Below, piece by piece: positions 6,574-64,000 of a DNA stretch of 64,000 nucleotides (its first letter is position 1; the number at the start of each line of letters is the position of its first letter). A program made the translations under genes and the position numbers. This DNA is from Limnoperna fortunei (lineage: Eukaryota; Mollusca; Bivalvia; Mytilida; Modiolidae). The stretch is taken from contig OX104119.1 of the NCBI GenBank assembly GCA_944474755.1, positions 82,526,896-82,590,895 of the forward strand. The letters run 5' to 3'. The notes beneath the pieces are model-generated. The model saw nothing but the letters and a program-made list of their open reading frames with translations, had not been told where the DNA came from and made no database searches.

Positions 6574-7913
6574 TATGGTCTTCGAATAGGGGAATAGTTG
6601 ACAGTTTTTTTGGGGCTATTCCGCCGGTTTCTGCTGGGGGATCTACTTTTAGATCCAGTATCTGGGGGTAGTGTATCCATGGGATCGCCCCAGATAGTAG
6701 TGTCTAGATGATCTAGACTTCCAAACCTGTTGTGGACCTTAATGGGATCCCGCAGCAGTTTTGGAGTACGATCTCCTTTTTGATTTGATTTTTTATTTGA
6801 GTTAGAATTTACATTGGAGTTGGTATTTTTTAAATTTTTTTTGGGGCTTCTTGAAGAATTGGTTGTGGATTGAGAGGGTGCTGAAGACGTCGCAGTTTGA
6901 GAGGGTGCTGAAGACGCAGCAGTTTGAGAAGATGACGATTTTCGTGAAGATTTAATGATTTTGTCTGTTGTTGTAACTGTTAATTTTGAAGGTTCCTGTT
7001 TGTCAATAGGCCAGGTGATGATTGTCTGCGTTTCAACTGAAGTGAGAACGCGTTTGGCAACACTGGCGTATGATGTTGATGCAGGAGACGAAGGATTATT
7101 CGTTGAATTATACAGACGACGAGCCTCGGGGTAAGGGATGTTTTTTTCAGTTTTTAACTTTTGTATCTCTTTTTCCTTTTTAAAATGATGACAATCCTTG
7201 GATGAGGACATGTGGGCTTCACCACAATTGGCACACTTTGGAGTTTTAGTGCAGGTAAAGCCCTCATGTCCTTCTTCGGCGCACTTAAAACAGATCAAGT
7301 GACCTCTGCACTGTCCCTTCCCATGGCCGAACTTTTGACACTTAAAGCAGCGCACAGGGTTGGAGATGTATGCGCTGACTTTAACATTGTAGAGACCGAT
7401 TTTTATTGATGAAGGGACAGATGGAGTATTAAAGTGTAGGAGGAAGGTATTCAGTTTGACCTGAACACCTTCTCTGTTGGCTACGAATCTTTTGACTTTA
7501 GTTATACCCTGAGGTTTAAGTTCTTCACAAATTTCGTCATCTGTAAGTTCAGAGAGATCTTGGTCTCTGTAACGAATAATACCTTGACTGGAATTTAACG
7601 TTCTATGAGGAGAAGAAGAGATGTTTAAATCAAGAATTTTGTTTAATTTTAACAAATTGAAGGATTGCTGTTTCTTTGAACATTCAATTAACAAAGAGCC
7701 TGATTTCAATTTTGTAACATTTTTTACATCTCCTGCACAACCCTTTATAGTTTTTTCAATTACAAAAGGAGAAATTTTGGATAAAGGTTTATTTTGTTCA
7801 GTACTGGTTAGAACAATAAATCTTGACCACTGCTCATCGTCAACCATTTCTTCTAGAGCGAATTCATTTTTTCTTTTTTTTGAACTTGTTATACCATTAG
7901 TTTTAGAAGCCAT
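6573..7913 (-). CDS. LINE ORF1: gag-like nucleic-acid-binding protein
   Basis: I start it at ATG 7913 (MASKTNG); the frame is open 12 codons further but only from a GTG. The 446-residue protein has a central run of three zinc knuckles around residues 190-240 (CFKCQKFGHGKGQC, CFKCAEEGHEGFTC, CANCGEAHMSSSKDC), preceded by a region rich in basic residues. The C-terminal third is Ser/Thr/Asn-rich with direct APSQ-type repeats and SPKK-like motifs. By family analogy it coats the LINE RNA in a ribonucleoprotein. Its TAA overlaps the ORF2 ATG by one base. LINE copy 2 has the same gene in broken form (22389-23460). Confidence 0.9.
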   Translation of the reverse strand: MASKTNGITSSKKRKNEFALEEMVDDEQWSRFIVLTSTEQNKPLSKISPFVIEKTIKGCAGDVKNVTKLKSGSLLIECSKKQQSFNLLKLNKILDLNISSSPHRTLNSSQGIIRYRDQDLSELTDDEICEELKPQGITKVKRFVANREGVQVKLNTFLLHFNTPSVPSSIKIGLYNVKVSAYISNPVRCFKCQKFGHGKGQCRGHLICFKCAEEGHEGFTCTKTPKCANCGEAHMSSSKDCHHFKKEKEIQKLKTEKNIPYPEARRLYNSTNNPSSPASTSYASVAKRVLTSVETQTIITWPIDKQEPSKLTVTTTDKIIKSSRKSSSSQTAASSAPSQTATSSAPSQSTTNSSRSPKKNLKNTNSNVNSNSNKKSNQKGDRTPKLLRDPIKVHNRFGSLDHLDTTIWGDPMDTLPPDTGSKSRSPSRNRRNSPKKTVNYSPIRRP

Positions 7914-22389: not shown

Positions 22390-23460
22390 TATGGTCTGTG
22401 AATAGTGGAATAGTTGACAGTTTTTTTGGGCTATTCCGCCGGTTTCTGCTGGGGGATCAACTTTTAGATCCAGTATCTGGGGGATAGTGTATCCATGGGA
22501 TCGCCCCAGATAGTAGTGTCTTATCTAGACTTCTAAACCTGTTGTGGACCTTTATGGGATCCCTCAGCAGTTTTGGAGTACGATCTCCTTTTTGATTTGA
22601 GTTTTTATTAGAGTTAGAAAAATTTAAATAGGAGTTTTTTTTAATTTGTTTTTGGCTGCTTGAAGAATTGGTTGAGGATTGAGAGGGTACTGAAGACGTA
22701 GCAGTTTGAGAGGGTGCTGAAGACGTAGCAGTTTGTGAAGATGACGATTTTCGTCTGTTGTTGTAACTGTTAATTTTGAAGGTTCCAGTTTGTCAATAGG
22801 CCAGGTGATGATTGTCTGCGTTTCAACAGAAGTGAGAACGCGTTTGGCCACACTGGCGTATGACGTTGATGCTGGAGACGAGGGATTATTCGTTGTATTA
22901 TACAGACGACGAGCCTCAGGGTAAGAGATGTTTTTTTCAGTTTTTATCTGATGAATTTCTTTTTCCTTTTTTAAATGCTGAGTCCTTAGATGAGGACATG
23001 TGGGCTTCACCACAATTAGCACACTTTGGAGTTTTAGTGCAGGTGAAGCCTTCATGTCCTTCCTCTGCACAATTAAAACAAATCTGGTGACCTCTGCACT
23101 GTCGCTTTCCGTGGCCGAACTTTTGACACTTAAAGCAGCGCACAGGGTTGGAGATGTATGCGCTGACTTTAGCTTTGTAGAGACCAATCTTGATAGATTC
23201 GGAGCCAGTGGGTGTGTTGAAATTTAACAGAAAGGTGTTCAGTTCAGTTTTACCTGAACACCCTGTCTGTTAGCAATAAATCTTTTCACTTTTGTAACAC
23301 CCTGAGGCTCTAGTAGTAAACAGATTTCGTCGTCCGATAATTCCGAGAGATCTTCGCCTCGGTAACGAATAATCCCTCGACTCGAGTTGAGATATTTCTA
23401 AATCAACAATTTTTGAAAGTTTGGTTAATTTGAAGACTGGTGTTTTCTATTACATTCAAT
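22389..23460 (-). pseudogene. LINE copy 2 ORF1 remnant
   Basis: Frames within 22624-23187 hold the zinc-knuckle region (CFKCQKFGHGKRQC, CFNCAEEGHEGFTC) and the Ser/Thr-rich tail, but split between two frames. The N-terminal part near 23230-23460 is partly duplicated (cagttcagtttt) and shortened. Confidence 0.85.
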
Positions 23461-51649: not shown

Positions 51650-52200
51650 CTGCCTGGGTGGTCTTTCTTATTAGGGCTCGCCACGTTGTGGCGGACGCAC
51701 TACAGTCTGTCCGTCTGAAACTATTCATTTCATCTGTTGTCATTGCCATGGGTACATCATTTTCCGCAATGTAAGAAACAAATTCTTTGGAGATGTCATA
51801 ATTATCGGCATCCGAGGTTTCTTCACGCGGACTCTATGGCCCAATAAACACTGAGCGCTTCGCGTTCTGTCTGGGAATACCGCTTTTCGACCTGTGATAG
51901 TTTCCTACTTGCGTAATCTACTGGTTTATTATTTCAATGTGCTTGTTTTTGTATTCAACCCCACGGATTTGCATCAACGATGATACTTGTTTCAGCATCT
52001 TGGTTGTAATAACTCGTCACTTCCGCACTTGATAAATTTTTTAAAGGTCTCGAACGCGATTCTTTGTTCGTTGTTCCATTTCCACTTCGTTTTTTTACGT
52101 GTTACTTTTATTAGTAGTGCAGATAGAGTATCAAAGTCACGAATGTATTGTGTACAGAAATTCACAAGTCCTAGAAAGCTTCGGATGGATTTGTGGGGTA
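51650..52200 (-). pseudogene. gypsy RT/RNase H remnant
   Basis: In broken minus-strand frames I read LSQVEKRYSQTEREALSVYW near 51870, IVDANPWG near 51970, and RT-thumb text (KKRSGNGTTNKE in one frame) near 52070-52180, the usual RT-RNase H junction of Metaviridae. Multiple stops and shifts. Confidence 0.75.
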
Positions 52201-53330
52201 AATAGCAAAAATGGTCAGCAGTACCATCCGTACAATTCAGTCAGTTGGTATGAAATTGTAAGATGACTCCTTAAACGAGTTATTGCCCTTAAATGACATT
52301 TTTTTTAATTAAATTTACCGTTTTTGTCCTGTAACTTAAAAACTATAACAGGTAGAGTGAAACTATAAATAGCAGAAATGATCAGCAATAAAAATTCTAT
52401 AATTAACCTAATTGGTCTGAAATTGTCAGATGACTCCTTATGTGGATTATTACCCTTAAATGACAAATTTTTATGACATTTTCCTTTTTTGTTCCGTAAA
52501 TTAAAAACTATAACAGCTAGTCAAAAAATGCAAAAATGATCAGAAGTGCAAGCCCTACAGTTGACGTCAATGGTCTGAAACTGTCAGATTACTCCTTACA
52601 AAAGTTTTTACCATTAAATGACAATATTTCAATGAAATTTTCTGTTTTTGTCCTGTAACTTGAAAACTATAACAGTTAGAGTGAAACTATAAATGGCAAT
52701 TATGATCAGCAGTATAAGCCCTACAATTCTCGAATTTAATCTGAAATTGTCAGATGACTCCTTATAGGTGTTATTGCCCTTTAAATGATATTTTCCGCTT
52801 TTGACCTGTAATTTAAAAACTATAACAGCTAGAGTGTAACTGTAAATTGCTAAAATGATCAGCAATACATGTTCTAGAATTCACTTTCTTGGTCTGAAAT
52901 TATCATATGATTCCTCATTAGAGTTGATGCCCTTTTATAAACATTTTTGTTGGAATTTGTAACTTAAATGCCATAACAGCTCGATTGAAACTGCAATATT
53001 ACACAAATGATCAGCAAAACAAGGCCTACAAATCATTGGTTAGTCTTAAATTGCAAGATGGATCTTTATAGGAGTTATTGCATTTTAATTACGATTTTGG
53101 ACAAATAATCAGTTTTTGTGTTATAATTTAAAGTCTGTAACACCTAGAGTAAAACTGTAAATTACTTAATTACCATGAGGGACAAGGCCTACAAATCTTT
53201 TATTTTCAGAAATTGTCTGATAGCACCTGATAGGAGTTATCGTAAACCAAAACGTTTGAAGTAATGTTTATTTTTTACCAGAAACGCTATAACTAGACTG
53301 AAACTGTAAATTGCAAAAATTTAAATATAG
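52201..53330. repeat. Degenerate minisatellite, about 160-bp period, seven or more units
   Basis: Units are marked by aaatgatcagcag-like text at about 52207, 52375, 52533, 52698, 52852, 53005 and 53171, each followed by ggtctgaaattgtcagatga and gtcctgtaacttaaaaacta. Divergence is high, so it is old. Confidence 0.8.
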
Positions 53331-54242: not shown

Positions 54243-57200
54243 TTACAGAGCAACGAATATCTTCTTTCTGTACAAAACATACGCCAAAACAACGAAAATT
54301 GACGTGTCCCATGTAGCCTTTAAAAGTAGACTGGCGTGATCCTCTGGAACCTTAAAATTTACAGGAAAAAATCTGTAGAAGATGTCATGGCAACAGTAGA
54401 CTACTATTGAGTTCATACCTGAAATGGAAAAACAAACACTTTGGCAAGGAACCTGTACGAATCATTGTATTTACGTTAATTACAGAAATTATAATTGCTA
54501 GTCAATGATTTGAACGCATACACGATCAATTTTCGAAGACAGACCTTTAAACGAATCAAAATAATTATTAATAGGTTCGAATGCTGAACTCGATTGAAAA
54601 ATATAGGTGAAAACCTGAGCAAACAAGACGAAACAAAGGAAGATTTCAGGCATGTTTTTTTACAAGATTTACGACTTTTGAAATCGGCGAGTTAATTGAA
54701 ACTGGCGCATACATATTTAAATTTAAAGATATAAACCAAACAAAACTGAAAAAACTAAACCAAGTCGAATAGGAAATAAAATACTACTTGTTACGCCACA
54801 AGAGGTAAAAACAATTATTGTAGGAAATAAGGCCACTTCAAGAAATACTTTATGAAGGATACTGACATTTTATTGGTTTTAACTAGGCTGACTGGCTATA
54901 AGCGAGTACAGCCAATAATGTTTAGCTTGGTAGGTTATCGATTGGAAACATTTTTATAGAACCCGTTAGCTTTATGTCACTCAGATGCAAAACTTAAACT
55001 TCGAACAGCATAAGATCTTTTACTGTTTGGAAGCACTTTACACTTTCCGACACAAATTCGTTTACTGGTGTATACATACATAATTGCAAATATGTTATTC
55101 AACATTATTAGGGACTATAGATCAGAAAGCTTGTCTTTGTATTCTTTACATACACTACTGTTTATAAAAAACATTCTGGTATATATGAATATATTTCCTT
55201 TCAGATCCTATAAATATCTTTAAAACCGTACAGGGATATATGAATGGATCTCCTTCCCAGATCTTATATATATCTATAAAACCATACCAGGATATATGAA
55301 TGGATCTCCTTCCCAGATCTTATAAATATCTATAAAACCATACCAGGATATCTGAATGGATCTCCTTCCCAGATCTTATATATATCTATAAAACCATACC
55401 AGGATATATGAATGGATCTCCTTCCCAGATCTTATAAATATCTATAAAACCATACCAGGATATCTGAATGGATCTCCTTCCCAGATCTTATATATATCTA
55501 TAAAACCATACCAGGATATATGAATGGATCTTTCCAGATCTTATAAATATCTATAAAACCATACCAGGATATATGAATGGATCTCCTTCCCAGATCTTAT
55601 AAATATCTATAAAACCATACCAGGATATATGAATGGATCTCCTTCCCAGATCTTATATATATCTATAAAACCGTACAAGGATATATGAATGGATCTCCTT
55701 CCCAGATCGTATAAATATCTATAAAACCGTACAAGGATATATGAATGGATCTCCTTCCCAGATCTTATATATATGTATAAAACCATACCAGGATATATGA
55801 ATGGATCTCCTTCCCAGATCTTATAAATATCTATAAAACCATACCAGGATATATGAATGGATCTTCCCAGATCTTATATATATCTATAAAACCATTCCAG
55901 GATATATGAATGGATCTCCTTCCCAGATCTTATAAATATCTATAAAACCATACCAGGATATATGAATGGATCTCCTTCCCAGATCTTATATATATCTATA
56001 AAACCGTACAAGGATATATGAATGGATCTCCTTCCCAGATCTTATAAATATCTATAAAACCGTACAAGGATATATGAATGGATCTCCTTCCCAGATCTTA
56101 TAAATATCTATAAAACCGTACAAGGATATATGAATGGATCTCCTTCCCAGATCTTATATATATCTATAAAACCATACCAGGATATATGAATGGATCTCCT
56201 TCCCAGATCTTATATATATCTATAAAACCATACCAGGATATATGAATGGATCTCCTTCCCAGGTCTTATAAATATCTATAAAACCATACCAGGATATATG
56301 AATGGATCTCCTTCCCAGATCTTATAAATATCTATAAAACCATTCCAGGATATATGAATGGATCTCCTTCCCAGATCTTATAAATATCTATAAAACCATA
56401 CCAGGATATATGAATGGATCTCCTTCCCAGATCTTATATATATCTATAAAACCATACCAGGATATATGAATGGATCTCCTTCCCAGATCTTATAAATATC
56501 TATAAAACCATACCAGGATATATGAATGGATCTCCTTCCCAGATCTTATAAATATCTATAAAACCATACCAGGATATATGAATGGATCTCCTTCCCAGAT
56601 CTTATAAATATCTATAAAACCATACCAGGATATCTGAATGGATCTCCTTCCCAGATCTTATAAATATCTATAAAACCATACCAGGATATATGAATGGATC
56701 TTCCCAGATCTTATAAATATCTATAAAACCGTATAAGGATATATGAATGGATCTCCTTCCCAGATCTTATAAATATCTATAAAACCATACCAGGATATAT
56801 GAATGGATCTCCTTCCCAGATCTTATAAATATCTATAAAACCATACCAGGATATATGAATGGATCTCCTTCCCAGATCTTATAAATATCTATAAAACCGT
56901 ATAAGGATATATGAATGGATCTCCTTCCCAGATCTTATAAATATCTATAAAACCATACCAGGATATATGAATAGATCTCCTTCCCAGATCTTATAAATAT
57001 CTATAAAACCATACCAGGATATATGAATGGATCTTCCCGGATCTTATAAATATCTATAAAACCGTATAAGGATATATGAATGGATCTCCTTCCCAGATCT
57101 TATAAATATCTATAAAACCGGACAAGGATATATGAATGGATCTCCTTCCCAGATCTTATAAATATCTATAAAACCATACCAGGATATATGAATGGATCTC

Positions 57201-60200
57201 CTTCCCAGATCTTATAAATATCTATAAAACCGTACAAGGATATATGAATGGATCTCCTTCCCAGATCTTATAAATATCTATAAAACCATACCAGGATATA
57301 TGAATGGATCTCCTTCCCAGATCTTATAAATATCTATAAAACCATACCAGGATATATGAATGGATCTTCCCAGATCTTATAAATATCTATAAAACCGTAC
57401 CAGGATATATGAATGGATCTTCCCAGATCTTATAAATATCTATAAAACCATACCAGGATATATGAATGGATCTTCCCAGATCTTATAAATATCTATAAAA
57501 CCATACCAGGATATATGAATGGATCTCCTTCCCTGATCTTATATATATCTATAAAACCATACCAGGATATATGAATGGATCTCCTTCCCAGATCTTATAA
57601 ATATCTATAAAACCATACCAGGATATATGAATGGATCTACTTCCCTGATCTTATATATATCTATAAAACCATACCAGGATATATGAATGGATCTCCTTCC
57701 CAGATCTTGTATATATCTATGACTATATACAGTACTGTTAATAGGAAGAATGCGAACGATGCTGTCACCAAAATGAAGGATACCGACCTACAATATATGT
57801 TATATATATATTTTAGTATACTGGGACCATACTAGGAGGGTTCCCACAGAGCAGCTCAGCGCGTCTCCGTGTTCGGATAAGGGAGACCCTCTCGTTGGGG
57901 TTGACAGGTCATAATACGGATAGTCTGGTTGCGGACCTTAGTTGGTTACGTGTTTGGAGAGTGCCATGCTCCTTGCACGATAAAGACCCTTTTTGTAGAT
58001 TTCGAAAAAGAGTAGATTCATTGTAGCCGCTACAAAAGGCTATATTCTCCACCCTAACCGAAAATGCCATATTTGTCCACTAGCAGTCTTAATTGTATTC
58101 CCTGTGTCAAGTCACACCCACTTTTTCCGTTGATTAATTGTTTGTTAACTTGTTCTCGTCCCGAATATAGCTGTAATACTGCTCGCTGGACGTAAAGCCA
58201 ACATTCAATCAATCAATGTTTTATTTTAATATGCAAACTGCATATAAAAGTTAACGACGGTTTTGTATAGTGTCATTCTGTTTTTGTATTTGTTCTCAAT
58301 ACATACGTCCATCACAAAATCACTACTGTTTTCCAATTGATAAAAAGAGAACTCGGAGATCCTTGTTTCGTTAATTAAAAGGATTATTCATGGCTTGACA
58401 ACAAATATCTATGTGGCATGTTCGAAGCAAACTTTTTCAGTGTTCTTTAAAATGGTTTAAATATAAGTCGGTTTATTTTGTTTTGTATTTTTGATGGAAG
58501 CTTGAACAGTTCGTAATACGGGCAATAATACTGCTATTCAAATTACATATTACATACCACAAATTTTTGTTAAGAGGTATCCAACCATCATTCTGGGAAC
58601 CCTTACACAGAATGGCACCAATAACACCCTGTAAAAAACTGCATTTCAGAGGGTTTGTTGTACAATATCATCTTTTCTCTTTATTTGAAACGTAACAAAT
58701 CAGAAGATCTTCAGTGCTATGTTGGCCTAGGTGGTCCAGTGGTTAAAGTAGTGTCAACAATGAGACAATTATTATCCTTAATAAATGATTATTCATTATA
58801 TAGCCGCAAAACTGAAATATAAGCTATTCAAAGATACAAACAAATCTAACTGTAAGCTAAAATATTCAATACAAACCTGAAATTAATTTGTTTTAATGCG
58901 TGTACTCATGTAAACAGATATTATTCCTTCTTCATAAAATAACTATGTATTTTTTATAAATTATTCCACAAACTTACAGTTATTACACCCCAAACTAGCC
59001 ATCTTATTATCCTTTGCTTTGGTGTTTGGAAACAAATTAATACACGCCCTGCCTGAAAATAAACAGGAAATACAGAGCAGTAGCTACGACCGTTGGCATA
59101 TTGCGGCTGGCTTTTCGCAGCTTATTTGACATATTTAAGTAGGTAGATGGAAATACAACAGTTTATCAAAAGTGAGTTATTGTCGAAAATAAGTAGTCAA
59201 ATTCAAGTAAAAATAACCTTCCAAGTATCCATTGTTTTGCTTATAGTTTAGTCGTCCTACAACCAACGCTAAAACCCGTTACTGATAAAATATAGTACTT
59301 AATTAAATTATCATGTTTTTAACTTCGAGGTTTATCTGAGGTAATTATTCCATATTTTGTTTTATTCTTAAACGATGTATTCACTGGAAAACATCGTATG
59401 CTTTAGAGGTTCATATTAGTTAAAAATTGCATATGAGAAGCCTTTATGACGTAACTCTTGTTTTACCAATTAGCGACAGAGAACAAAAGCCCAAACGTTG
59501 ATTATTAATTTTTTTCTAAGTGAAAATTGATAAAATATTATACACCAATATATTTCGACATTATTTTAATTATGATTTTTTGCCATTCGCAACCAGAGAA
59601 TGGTTATTGTTGTGGAAAAAAGTTCTGTCGTAGGAATTTATTCATCACCACATTCAAAATGAATGCTAATGAAACTACTTACTTGAATACCGAGAAAACA
59701 AAGAAATATTGAAGATAAAGTCCCCAGAATTCCTTCTGGATCATGTGGTGCTGTAGTTTGGTATATTGTCTACAAGAGAAGTAATATATACAACAGAAAA
59801 AATACTATATAGATAACAATTTACCTTAATGTATGATTGGATTTTTATCTGCAAACTACAGATAATATGTAAAAAAAAACGTTAATCCTATATTTGTGAT
59901 TAAAAATTTAACAACAATCGTTTGGTGGAGATTAAAAGATATAATACCAACCTGTGGTGTTGGGTGACCATAAATATGATTTTTACCAAGAACCAGTACA
60001 TCTATATATTGTGCTACTCCGCCAGTACAGTTGTAGTATTTACCGCCCTCGTGTAATCCTCCAGGGCCGATATATCCTCTAATAATAAAGGCAATATTGA
60101 ATTATTAATTACATAACAGGTGGATATCAAATCCATGTTTTTCATTTTATATTCAGACCTTATATTCAAATGAGGAAAAATCTAATATATTCCTACTTTT

Positions 60201-61466
60201 TATAACTAATCTTTTAAAAATAAACATCCAGATGGGGTGTAAGTACGCACTCTGGTTTTAACACTGCAAAATGACATTAACTGCACACTCAGACGGTAAA
60301 TTACTTGACCCCATAAAACGGCTGAACATTACCGATATTTACTTTCAATCCATTTACAAGGCCATAACGATATTCTTAATAGACAGTTAAATGTGCTTTA
60401 AAATGAGTACATGTTTTATATATAATACTAGACATATGCTTTAAACACTTACATACATTTACTAATCACTCAGACATTGTTGAAACATAACACTTCATAC
60501 TAAATTGGACAAACTGCCTAGTTAGTCCGATTCTAACCCGAATACAAAAAATAGCGAATAGCAAAGATAATTAAATTATGAAACCAACAAAATCTATCTT
60601 ACGTCGGACATCCTGGAAACGGTAGTGTGAGCGTCAATACCATATATACTGCCAAAATAACCAGGGAAATTATCCATTGTGGGACTAAGGATAAAATGTC
60701 AACAACTGGAGCACACCGTCTCTGCTGAAACGTAACAGTGTATGAAGTCATTTATTTAACATTCCTAGACATTTGGTATGCATATAAAATGGTAAACATA
60801 TTTTGACTGTTAATCCAATAATAACTGTTGTTTTGGCGCAGAGTTTTGCTGTACTTAACTCCTACAATAATAACTGTTTTTTTTTTGGCGAAGAGTTCTG
60901 CTGTACTTAACTCCTACAATAATAACTGTTGTTTTGGTGCAGTGTTCTGAACTGTACTTAACTCCTACAATAATACACTCGGCTGAACTCTTGGTAGTTA
61001 CACTAAACATCAATATATCTATTATTGTAATCTTCAGTATTTGGTTCGTAGATTTATGTTTTGATTGATTAATAGTTGGCGTTCAGCGAGCAATATTTCA
61101 GCTTGCTCAGGACAATTAAGAAATCAACGGCGAAAAGGAATGGACTTACGGGAACACAATTTGGACTGGCATACGAAAGGTGTGGAGCATTAGGTAAAGA
61201 CGGAGAATTAAGCTTCTTGTAGTGTCTAAAATGGACCCAAGTCTACGAGATAAATAATTCGCAGTAGTTTCAAAACCACGTGATTATCATGTTGCAATAA
61301 CAACAGAAATAATGGTGTATTTAATTTTACTTAAACAAAAGTTTAATAATTCTTACCTTGATTTTATAACTGCTTATGAAAATCAGTTCAATAACTGCCA
61401 GCACTAAGTAAGTTAGGCTAAATCTCTGTAATACACCGGGTATCCTTAGGCGTTTCAAATCAATCG
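54243..61466 (-). CDS. HGSNAT: Heparan-alpha-glucosaminide N-acetyltransferase-like gene, last eight exons
   Basis: Exons in transcript order: 61466-61357, 60724-60603, 60078-59952, 59769-59683, 59052-58978, 58628-58558, 57787-57675, 54418-54243 (stop TAA). All junctions are GT..AG and phases agree, giving 292 residues without a stop. Family landmarks: [16 protein letters not shown] continuing into [20 protein letters not shown] across a junction; [23 protein letters not shown]; a W-x-G-x-PF-x-YPG motif; and the C-terminal GMNS...LYRKK. The human enzyme is a multi-pass lysosomal membrane protein that acetylates terminal glucosamine of heparan sulfate using cytosolic acetyl-CoA; the role here is by homology. 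N-terminal exons lie beyond 64000. The last visible intron (54419-57674) holds a satellite made from its own 5' boundary. Confidence 0.93.
54419..55177. other. Satellite-free 3' part of the last HGSNAT-like intron
   Basis: No exon or repeat recognised; the intron acceptor is the cag at 54421-54419 (minus). Confidence 0.5.
55178..57719 (-). repeat. 56-bp satellite derived from an HGSNAT exon end plus its 5' splice site, about 45 units
   Basis: The 56-bp unit, read on the minus strand, is GATATTTATAAGATCTGGGA (20 nt), then the rest of a 41-nt block identical or nearly so to the last 41-43 nt of exon 57787-57675, then about 15 nt starting gtatggttttata, which is the start of the following intron. 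The exon end itself is the first unit. Two main donor types occur, CTG|GTATGG and CTT|GTACGG, plus TATATATAT/TATAAATAT variants and shorter units lacking 5 nt. Units decay only at the far (55178) end. Confidence 0.95.
57820..58217 (+). mobile_element. SINE in an HGSNAT-like intron
   Basis: Body (gtcataatacggatagtctg, cgataaagaccctttttgta, tcattgtagccgctacaaaa) and tail (gaatatagctgtaatactgc, aatcaatcaat) match the 27200 copy. Confidence 0.9.
58717..58775 (+). mobile_element. 5' fragment of a tRNA-derived SINE
   Basis: tgttggcctaggtggtccag, tggttaaagtagtgtcaaca resembles the head of the 43737 SINE. Confidence 0.55.
60818..60977. repeat. Three tandem units of about 55-60 bp in an HGSNAT-like intron
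   Basis: aataataactgttgttttgg ... tgctgtacttaactcctac repeats three times, upstream of the exon starting at 60724. Confidence 0.85.
61068..61225 (-). mobile_element. SINE tail fragment, minus strand
   Basis: gttcagcgagcaatatttcagct is the inverse of the shared tail; ggcatacgaaaggtgtggag and gacggagaattaagcttctt match the body. Confidence 0.75.
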
Positions 61467-62182: not shown

Positions 62183-62236
62183 TATGATATGCCACACATA
62201 ACCAACCAGAGCAAATGGGCGGATACGGTTAAAAAC

Positions 62237-64000
62237 TTGACAAGTAACTCTGGTTTAATGTTATCATGACAAGTAACTCTGGTTTAATGTTATCAGTGTT
62301 TAAATACTTGACAAGTAACTCTGGTTTAATGTTATCAGTGTTTAAATACTTGACAAGTAACTCTGGTTTAATGTTATCTTGACAAGTAACTCTGGTTTAA
62401 TGTTATCTTGACAAGTAACTCTGGTTTAATGTTATCATCAGTGTTTAAATACTTGACGAGTAACTCTGGTTTAATGTTATCATCAGTGTTTAAATACTTG
62501 ACAAGTAACTCTGGTTTAATGTTATCATCGGTGTTTAAATACTTGACAAGTAACTCTGGTTTAATGTTATCATCAGTGTTTAAATACTGGACAAGTAACT
62601 CTGGTTTAATGTTATCATCAGTGTTTAAATACTTGACAAGTAACTCTGGTTTAATGTTATCATCAGTGTTTAAATACTTACGACCCCATGGTTTAATGTT
62701 ATCATCAGTGTTTAAATACTTACGACAAGTAACTCTGGTTTAATGTTATCATGACAAGTAACTGGTTTAATGTTATCATCGGTGTTTAAATACTTACGAC
62801 CCCATGGTTTAATGTTATCATCGGTGTTTAAATACTTACGACCCCATGGTTTAATGTTATCATCAGTGTTTAAATACTTACGACCCCATGGTTAAATATT
62901 ATCATCAGTGTTTAAATACTTGACAAGTAACTCTGGTTTAATGTTATCATGACAAGTAACTCTGGTTTAATGTTATCATCGGTGTTTAAATACTTACGAC
63001 CCCATGGTTTAATGTTATCATCAGTGTTTAAATACTTACGACCCCATGGTTTAATGTTATCATCAGCGTTTAAATACTTACGACCCCATGGTTTAATGTT
63101 ATCAGTGTTTAAATACTTACGACCCCATGGTTTAATGTTATCATCAGTGTTTAAATACTTACGACCCCATGGTTTAATGTTATCATCAGTGTTTAAATAC
63201 TTGACAAGTAACTCTGGTTTAATGTTATCATCAGTGTTTAAATACTTGACAAGTAACTCTGGTTTAATGTTATCATCAGTGTTTAAATACTTGACAAGTA
63301 ACTCTGGTTTAATGTTATCATCAGTGTTTAAATACTTACGACCCCATGGTTTAATGTAATCATCAGTGTTTAAATACTTACGACCCCATGGTTTAATGTT
63401 ATCATCAGTGTTTAAATACTTACGACCCAATGGTTTAATGTTATCATCAGTGTTTAAATACTTACGACCCCATGGTTTAATGTTATCATCAGTGTTTAAA
63501 TACTTACGACCCCATGGTTTAATGTTATCATCAGTGTTTAAATACTTACGACCCCATGGTTTAATGTTATCATCAGTGTTTAAATACTTACGACCCCATG
63601 GTTTAATGTTATCATCAGTGTTTAAATACTTAAGACCCCATGGTTTAATGTTATCATCGGTGTTTAAATACTTACGACCCCATGGTTTAATGTTATCATC
63701 AGTGTTTAAATACTTACGACCCCATGGTTTAATGTTATCATCAGTGTTTAAATACTTGACAAGTAACTCTGGTTTAATGTTATCATCAGTGTTTAAATAC
63801 TTGACAAGCAACTCTGGTTTAATGTTATCATGACAAGTAACTCTGGTTTAATGTTATCATCAGTGTTTAAATACTTACGACCCCATGGTATAATGTTATC
63901 ATCAGTGTTTAAATACTTACGATCCCATGGTTTAATGTTATCATCAGTGTTTAAATACTTACGACCCCATGGTTTAATGTTATCATCAGTGTTTAAATAC
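62237..64000 (-). repeat. Second satellite, 42- and 45-bp units, about 40 copies, running off the window
   Basis: Minus-strand unit: AAGTATTTAAACACTGATGA then TAACATTAAACCA, followed either by TGGGGTCGT (42 bp) or GAGTTACTTGTC (45 bp). The 42-bp form gives a perfect donor, GGTC|GTAAGTAT, at every junction. Both lengths are multiples of three without stops, so long frames appear on both strands. The array lies upstream of exon 61466-61357, inside the HGSNAT-like transcription unit. Confidence 0.95.

What the first reader, a model, noticed from the sequence alone, without database searches (positions are those of the whole stretch)
55178..57787. An intronic satellite built from the gene's own exon end and 5' splice site
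The 56-bp unit repeated about 45 times in the last intron of the HGSNAT-like gene is not foreign sequence. Read on the gene's strand it is the last 41 nt of the preceding exon (encoding IYKIWEGDPFIYPG) plus about 15 nt of intron beginning gtatgg, and the true exon end is the first unit. Growth therefore began at an exon/intron border and kept the donor in each copy. I know of no named class of satellite defined by spanning a 5' splice site.
Basis: seen in the sequence. Interest (0 to 1): 0.92.

Follow-up and report, generated by a model that had tools for sequence, protein, structure and literature searches.

The report
Satellites grown from exon-end splice sites
In a mussel-like genome, tandem repeats carry copies of a gene's own exon end and 5' splice site; the same layout recurs at other genes, is far rarer for the one 3' splice-site motif counted, and likely grew by repeated local copying that splicing would ignore by using the first site.

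Summary
On the minus strand, 57720-55167 is 46 units, nearly all of 56 or 53 bp. Each carries the last 46 nt of an HGSNAT exon (57787-57675) plus 10 nt of intron with the donor; unit 1 is the real exon end. Corrections: the split is 46+10, not 41+15; GT survives in 39 of 44 downstream units (2-45), not in each; and a named class does exist, the 'mirages' of amphioxus.

The follow-up is larger than the finding. A second array in the same gene (64488-62233, about 54 units) also starts at a 5' splice site. In the same genome, three-in-a-row CAGGTAAGT gives 1220 matches against 304 for the reversed motif. It forms 16 arrays with unrelated units on contig 1 to 111.7 Mb. Of these, 4 begin at an exon supported by homology (IFT172, HUWE1, NDC1, a tyrosine kinase), 7 at an open exon-like stretch, and 5 at none. 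A 3' splice-site motif gives only 10 arrays in the whole genome.

Best reading: mirage-type, donor-biased minisatellites, common in this bivalve. Which donor is used, whether reads support the copy number, and why donors are favoured were not tested. A second donor motif did not show the excess at array level.

The parts
57675..57787 (-). Penultimate HGSNAT exon (113 nt, ...DIYKIWEGDPFIYPG), donor CCTG|GTATGG
   Evidence: Open frame across ten exons; homology to solved HGSNAT; junction conserved
55167..57720 (-). Array 1: 46 units of 56/53 bp (last 55 bp), each 46 nt exon end + 10 nt intron with the 5' splice site
   Evidence: TRF, unit segmentation, per-column variation
57665..57720 (-). Unit 1 of array 1 = the real exon end and donor
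   Evidence: Sequence
55167..55221 (-). Unit 46, degenerate intron-side edge (12 edits, GT lost)
54243..54418 (-). Last HGSNAT exon (acceptor TTTCAG|GTATGAAC), restores PG|MNSI
62233..64000 (-). Array 2, window part (continues to 64488 in L009): 42/45-bp units; the first joins exon end TGGGGTC to GTAAGTATTT
   Evidence: its exon 64630-64482 lies outside the window
61357..61466 (-). HGSNAT exon after array 2 (acceptor for NTNWG|P)
60603..60724 (-). HGSNAT exon
59952..60078 (-). HGSNAT exon
59683..59769 (-). HGSNAT exon
58978..59052 (-). HGSNAT exon
58558..58628 (-). HGSNAT exon

Best explanation
The array is a minisatellite whose unit spans an exon's 3' end and its 5' splice site (mirage type); it likely grew by repeated local duplication of that border, and splicing would use the first, exon-joined donor so that the remaining copies leave with the intron. 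Shown: unit composition, gene model, 46 units, a second such array in the same gene, and the same layout at other genes of this genome. Inferred: the first duplication arose by slippage or end-joining across the border, and the array then expanded and homogenised by slippage and unequal exchange. Inferred: proximal-donor choice, because any downstream donor of array 1 adds an immediate stop (...YPGMVL*), while array 2 read-through stays open for 15 repeats. Also inferred, and held at about 0.4 rather than at the confidence below: the donor bias reflects array birth or retention at 5' splice sites beyond mere tolerance, because donor-motif arrays exceed a reversed-motif control that should be neutral. 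The confidence below is for the mirage-type reading of the array.
For: Array 1 structure. Gene identity and conserved junction. Array 2 starts at the donor TGGGGTC|GTAAGTATTT, with a 26-nt exact border match repeated 19 times and 29 GTAAGT donors, the real one included; 54 unit cores, 15 repeats open on read-through. Genome: CAGGTAAGT x3 gives 1220 matches against 304 reversed, while single copies are 13512 against 10757. Array clusters on contig 1: 16 against 2 for the reversed motif and 0 for GATCAGAGT, a motif of the same composition (326 matches genome-wide). Acceptor motif TTTTTCAGG x3: 53 matches in 10 clusters genome-wide against 232 matches reversed, with 31909 single copies. Flanks of the 16 contig-1 clusters were read: 4 begin at homology-supported exons (IFT172, NDC1, tyrosine kinase, HUWE1) and 7 at open stretches with an acceptor and a donor. 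Array units share only short matches (12 nt) of the kind expected from the donor motif they were selected for.
Against: No RNA or read data, so donor use and true copy number are untested. In at least three arrays (L057, L058, L062) the exon-joined donor is GTAATT or GTGAGT while inner copies are GTAAGT, so if strength decided, an inner donor could win. A second donor motif, AAGGTGAGT x3, has a match excess (520 against 114) but only 7 clusters listed from contig 1 to C7:3.67 Mb, about 0.011 per Mb, lower than the reversed CAGGTAAGT motif's 0.026 per Mb. Of these 7, 2 begin at an open exon-like stretch, 4 do not and 1 was unresolved; its single-copy baseline did not complete. 5 of the 16 CAGGTAAGT arrays on contig 1, and 14 of 30 arrays read in all, show no exon at the edge or are unclear. 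For HUWE1 the match covers only the first 11 residues of the array's own exon. No related species could be compared.
Confidence: 0.84

Rival explanations
1. Tolerance only: tandem arrays arise everywhere in this repeat-rich genome, and those that overlap an exon survive only at its 3' end, because the first donor stays usable. There is no donor-specific cause.
For: The genome is rich in minisatellites. Arrays also occur away from visible exons (14 of 30 read are without one or unclear). AAGGTGAGT shows no array-level excess.
Against: Tolerance cannot lift donors above a neutral control, yet CAGGTAAGT arrays are 16 against 2 on contig 1 (p = 0.003 given single-site counts) and about 5.5 times denser per Mb than the reversed motif over C1-C5. 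Neutrality of the reversed motif is assumed.
Confidence: 0.35
2. Selected function: arrays of 5' splice sites act as U1 snRNP landing platforms that strengthen definition of the upstream exon or block premature polyadenylation (U1 roles recalled, from no call).
For: Many internal donors are intact: 30 of 44 identical in array 1, 29 GTAAGT in array 2 with the real one, 11 of 12 in the IFT172 array (8 nt compared). In three arrays the inner copies are closer to GTAAGT than the exon-joined donor.
Against: Array 1 has its variation concentrated in the donor (6 of 9 against 9 of 47 variable columns, p = 0.008), the opposite of conservation. Three other arrays show neither clear conservation nor a clear excess there. 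No expression data.
Confidence: 0.12
3. Source of new introns or exons: unit segments between ATAG and GTATGG (42 or 39 nt) keep the phase and could be used as in-frame extra exons.
For: Segment lengths are multiples of three and repeat DIYKIWEGDPFIYP in frame (sequence). The amphioxus authors propose such a route.
Against: The 14 nt between neighbouring segments are too short for an intron (general knowledge), and none of the 7 homologues carries an insert at this junction.
Confidence: 0.08
4. Assembly artefact: polymerase slippage or mis-assembly inflated a few copies.
For: No reads were available to test it.
Against: Unit variants are diverse, and unrelated arrays of the same design occur on other contigs.
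Confidence: 0.05

Closest known systems
Amphioxus 'mirages' (Adh3, globin, PGBD5 and troponin C genes; PMC3087553 and PMC3902484, passages read; the original 2002 Adh paper is not held)
   Same: Minisatellite-like tandem duplications spanning an exon/intron border; many repeats carry splice signals; homogenised centre with divergent edges; reported not to disturb splicing. Adh3 units (10-72 bp) are of the size seen here.
   Different: A bivalve, not amphioxus. Amphioxus cases include both 5' and 3' borders; here the one acceptor motif tested shows no excess. The globin BflGb6 case has 3 or 6 units of 150-160 bp; here up to 46 units of about 56 bp, and many loci.
Introns from tandem arrays / intron gain by tandem duplication of AG|GT (Rogers 1989; Zhuo et al. 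2007; seen as references in PMC3087553)
   Same: Local tandem duplication involving splice signals inside genes.
   Different: Here the exon junction is as in homologues and only the intron is lengthened; no new intron is shown.
Dual-specific splice sites in polyubiquitin UBC (PMC10809524, abstract read)
   Same: A tandem array of splice-site-bearing units in a gene.
   Different: UBC units are coding monomers with sites that act as both 5' and 3' splice sites; here copies lie in the intron and carry donors.
Internal tandem repeats in human segmental duplications (PMC2812944, outline and passages read)
   Same: Minisatellite expansion changes gene structure and can activate cryptic splice sites.
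   Different: No donor-spanning class was seen in the passages read; those repeats modify exons and introns of recent paralogs.

Membership tests
Mirages (border-spanning minisatellites) | Head-to-tail tandem repeat | tested here: met
Mirages (border-spanning minisatellites) | Unit spans a true exon/intron border | tested here: met
   Array 1 46+10 nt, array 2 7 nt of exon + intron; exons verified
Mirages (border-spanning minisatellites) | Homogenised interior, divergent border units | tested here: met
   Unit 46 has 12 edits against 0-4 in units 1-45
Mirages (border-spanning minisatellites) | Normal mRNA splicing despite duplicated splice sites | not testable with these tools
   No RNA data; only protein conservation across the junction
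Mirages (border-spanning minisatellites) | Length polymorphism between alleles or cells | not testable with these tools
   One assembly, no reads
Intron gain by tandem duplication | A new intron position is created | tested here: inconclusive
   At PG|MNSI none of 7 homologues has an insert; at NTNW|GP 6 of 7 have none and the annelid P0036 has one. Intron positions of the homologues were not seen, so the age of the intron is not shown
Dual-specific splice-site arrays (UBC type) | AG|GT site at each unit border | tested here: not met
   Array 1 donor is CTG|GTATGG, array 2 GTC|GTAAGT; CAG|GTAAGT does occur in other arrays but dual use is untested
Dispersed satellite family or mobile element | The same unit at many loci | tested here: not met
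   The array-1 unit was found only at this locus by a best-candidate search; 25 array units compared share only 12-nt matches

The most novel reading that the evidence does not exclude
In this bivalve, 5' splice sites are birthplaces of satellite DNA: hundreds of introns or more begin with a tandem array of their own exon end and donor, a donor-specific process linked to transcription or splicing that lengthens introns and fills them with copies of the real donor, so that only position can tell the spliceosome which one to use.
Probability: 0.4. Interest if true: 0.88.

Novelty: new variant of a known kind. Interest (0 to 1): 0.71.

Why it matters
Array 1 is a natural test of how a 5' splice site is chosen: 30 of 44 units in the same intron carry a 9-nt donor identical to the real one, so local sequence cannot decide and position must. 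If the donor bias holds in an annotated survey, donors would be a hot spot for satellite birth and a route of intron growth not described for bivalves in the papers searched here, and a class known from a few amphioxus genes would become a widespread one.

Tried and rejected
Rejected: the 41+15 split; a donor in every copy; 'no named class'; one dispersed satellite family as the cause; amplification of foreign DNA (the exon is conserved coding sequence).

Donor decay as a general rule: array 1 shows variation concentrated in the donor (p = 0.008, post hoc), but the arrays in L047, L050 and L052 show no clear excess, so no general claim is made.

AAGGTGAGT as a replicate: match excess but no array-level excess; told as evidence against. 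Arrays of its own reversed motif were not listed.

Led nowhere: Pfam found nothing, or nothing meaningful, for the exon candidates of L052, L055, L056, L057, L060, L061, L063, L065 and L070; for L071 it gave only below-cutoff matches, several to coiled-coil families. L048 was not searched. HUWE1 (L065) came from the PDB search, with the preceding exon joined: the match covers residues 1-53 of 66, and the array's exon is residues 43-66. PDB searches for L063 and L070 gave no hit. DENND6, RIC1 and kinesin as guesses for L057, L063 and L070 are recalled, not tested. Nine paper searches listed no bivalve case; their lists were capped and most were judged from titles and abstracts, so absence in print is claimed only for those listings. 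The earthworm metallothionein paper (PMC12783039, passages) describes intronic minisatellites, not border-spanning ones. A gene-first survey (family PF00063) did not complete and was not done, so the donor/acceptor contrast rests on motif searches. Array clusters were counted by eye from the listings, which stop at 100 places (the acceptor list, 53 places, is complete). Neither array of the window has the CAGGTAAGT motif, so neither is in those counts.
Full report
Observation. Tandem Repeats Finder reports a 56-bp, 45.8-copy array at 55181-57720. Cutting the minus strand unit by unit gives 46 units, 57720-55167: 56 bp, or 53 bp with one 3-nt deletion, and 55 bp for the last. Each unit is 46 nt of exon end (ATAG...CCTG) plus 10 nt of intron (GTATGGTTTT). 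Unit 1 is the real exon end; from the border, the longest stretch found again exactly inside the array is 54 nt, with 5 copies.

Gene. Ten exons on the minus strand, 66044 to 54243 (the first two lie outside the window, in L009), join into one open frame. It matches solved HGSNAT structures (human, as I recall) at 1.9e-123 over residues 2-375. The nearest protein listed is from Mytilus trossulus, 83% identical, so the species is probably a mytilid bivalve; the genome is 1.335 Gb in 285 contigs. In eight aligned proteins (this one and seven homologues) the residues G and MN of ...YPG|MNSI are invariant and none of the seven has an insert there, so the exon is conserved coding sequence and the array was derived from it. 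At the second junction, NTNW|GP, six of seven have no insert and one annelid protein (P0036) does. One residue, the Y of DIYKIW, is shared by exon and array but differs in all seven homologues (L, F or V), so the array is either younger than that change or has exchanged sequence with the exon.

Donors inside array 1. Of units 2-45, 39 of 44 keep GT and 30 of 44 have a 9-nt donor identical to the real one. Unit 46 is degenerate (12 edits) and has lost GT. Variable columns are 6 of 9 in the donor and 9 of 47 elsewhere (Fisher p = 0.008, post hoc); three other arrays do not show a clear excess. Reading on past unit 1 meets a stop at once...YPGMVL*, so use of any later donor would truncate the protein.

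A second array in the same gene. The exon ending at 64482 (...NTNWG) is followed directly by an array of mostly 42- or 45-bp units reaching 62233, with 54 unit cores. A 26-nt stretch across that border (7 nt exon, 19 nt intron) recurs exactly 19 times inside. The array holds 29 GTAAGT donors: 28 GTC|GTAAGT and 1 ATC|GTAAGT, the real one included. Read on from the exon, it stays open for 229 residues, 15 repeats.

Genome-wide. I searched the same genome for three motifs in a row with unit length about 27-57 bp. GGTAAGT: 14498 matches against 5954 for the reversed motif. CAGGTAAGT: 1220 against 304, although single copies are only 13512 against 10757. GATCAGAGT, of the same composition: 326 matches, many from one dispersed 50-bp family, and 90 for its reverse. 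Counted as arrays by eye, CAGGTAAGT forms 16 clusters on contig 1 up to 111.7 Mb (the list ends there), the reversed motif 2 on contig 1 and 14 over C1-C5 up to C5:97.7 Mb, and GATCAGAGT none on contig 1. Given single-site counts, 16 against 2 has p = 0.003; per Mb the ratio is about 5.5. The acceptor motif TTTTTCAGG gives 53 matches in 10 clusters in the whole genome, 2 of them on contig 1, against 232 matches for its reverse, with 31909 single copies. Scaled, CAGGTAAGT would give about 190 clusters. So for these motifs arrays favour the donor and not the acceptor.

Are they at exons? I read the 5' flanks of 30 donor-motif arrays: 10 (read), 13 more and 7. Five begin at the 3' end of an exon supported by homology: IFT172 (4.6e-12), NDC1 (3.3e-4 in PDB, 0.0016 and below cutoff in Pfam), a tyrosine kinase (1.1e-17), a DOMON protein (1e-4, below Pfam's cutoff) and HUWE1 (1.8e-21 with the preceding exon joined; only 11 residues of the array's own exon lie in the match). 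Ten begin at an open stretch of 36 to 189 nt with an acceptor before it and a donor after it but without a homology hit above cutoff; L048 of these was not searched, and short open stretches can be chance. Fourteen show none or are unclear, and in one the edge was not reached. Of the 16 contig-1 CAGGTAAGT arrays the split is 4, 7 and 5. The units of 25 arrays (23 loci plus the two in this gene) share only 12-nt matches, as expected from the motif they were selected for, so they most likely arose independently. In L057, L058 and L062 the exon-joined donor is GTAATT or GTGAGT while inner copies are GTAAGT.

Evidence against a general donor rule. AAGGTGAGT x3 has 520 matches against 114, but only 7 clusters were listed from contig 1 to C7:3.67 Mb, about 0.011 per Mb, lower than the reversed CAGGTAAGT control (control rate); 2 of the 7 begin at exon-like stretches. 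Its single-copy count did not complete. The array-level excess is therefore shown for one motif only.

How it most likely works. Local duplication across the exon/intron border, then growth and homogenisation by slippage and unequal exchange (inferred from unit variants and the degenerate edge). The first donor is used and the rest leaves with the intron (inferred; not tested by RNA). Why donors are favoured is open: neutral tolerance explains why such arrays survive, but not an excess over the reversed motif.

Compared with what is known. Minisatellites spanning exon/intron borders were named 'mirages' in amphioxus, at both 5' and 3' borders, and were reported not to disturb splicing (PMC3087553, passages and section 16 read; PMC3902484, passage read). 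Array 1 and array 2 meet the structural definition. What is added here is the phylum, the copy number, two in one gene, the recurrence through the genome, and the donor bias. No bivalve case was listed in nine paper searches.

Noticed in passing
60816-60975: A 52-bp, 3.2-copy repeat in another HGSNAT intron, about 380 nt after the donor; it does not span a splice site.
   Followed up: partly
52199-53035: A degenerate array of about 153-bp units downstream of the HGSNAT gene.
   Followed up: no
3819 and 19007 (minus-strand translations), 6870-6929 and 22679-22735: Near-identical coding-like stretches and a shared 27-bp repeat suggest two copies of one mobile or duplicated segment about 15 kb apart.
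   Followed up: no
57720-55222: Segments between ATAG and GTATGG in array 1 are 42 or 39 nt and in phase, repeating DIYKIWEGDPFIYP; they could in principle serve as in-frame exons.
   Followed up: partly
L057, L058, L062: The exon-joined donor (GTAATT or GTGAGT) differs from the GTAAGT of inner units, so these arrays would separate position from strength in donor choice.
   Followed up: partly
L065 (HUWE1 exon): Array units lack 9 nt that the exon itself has (GATGCTGCACAAGAACTACCAG in the exon against GATGAACTAACAG), which suggests that the array descends from a deleted copy.
   Followed up: no
C2, C5 and C12: A dispersed 50-bp satellite family (GATCAGAGTGGCAACAG...); the listed places on these contigs lie within the first 12 Mb.
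   Followed up: no
L010:8560 to L011:806: A long GC-richer array of 39-bp units (TTTGTTACAATAAACATCTGCCGGGCTGGGTAGCGGCCC) about 16 kb upstream of the first HGSNAT exon modelled; the gene's 5' end was not mapped.
   Followed up: no
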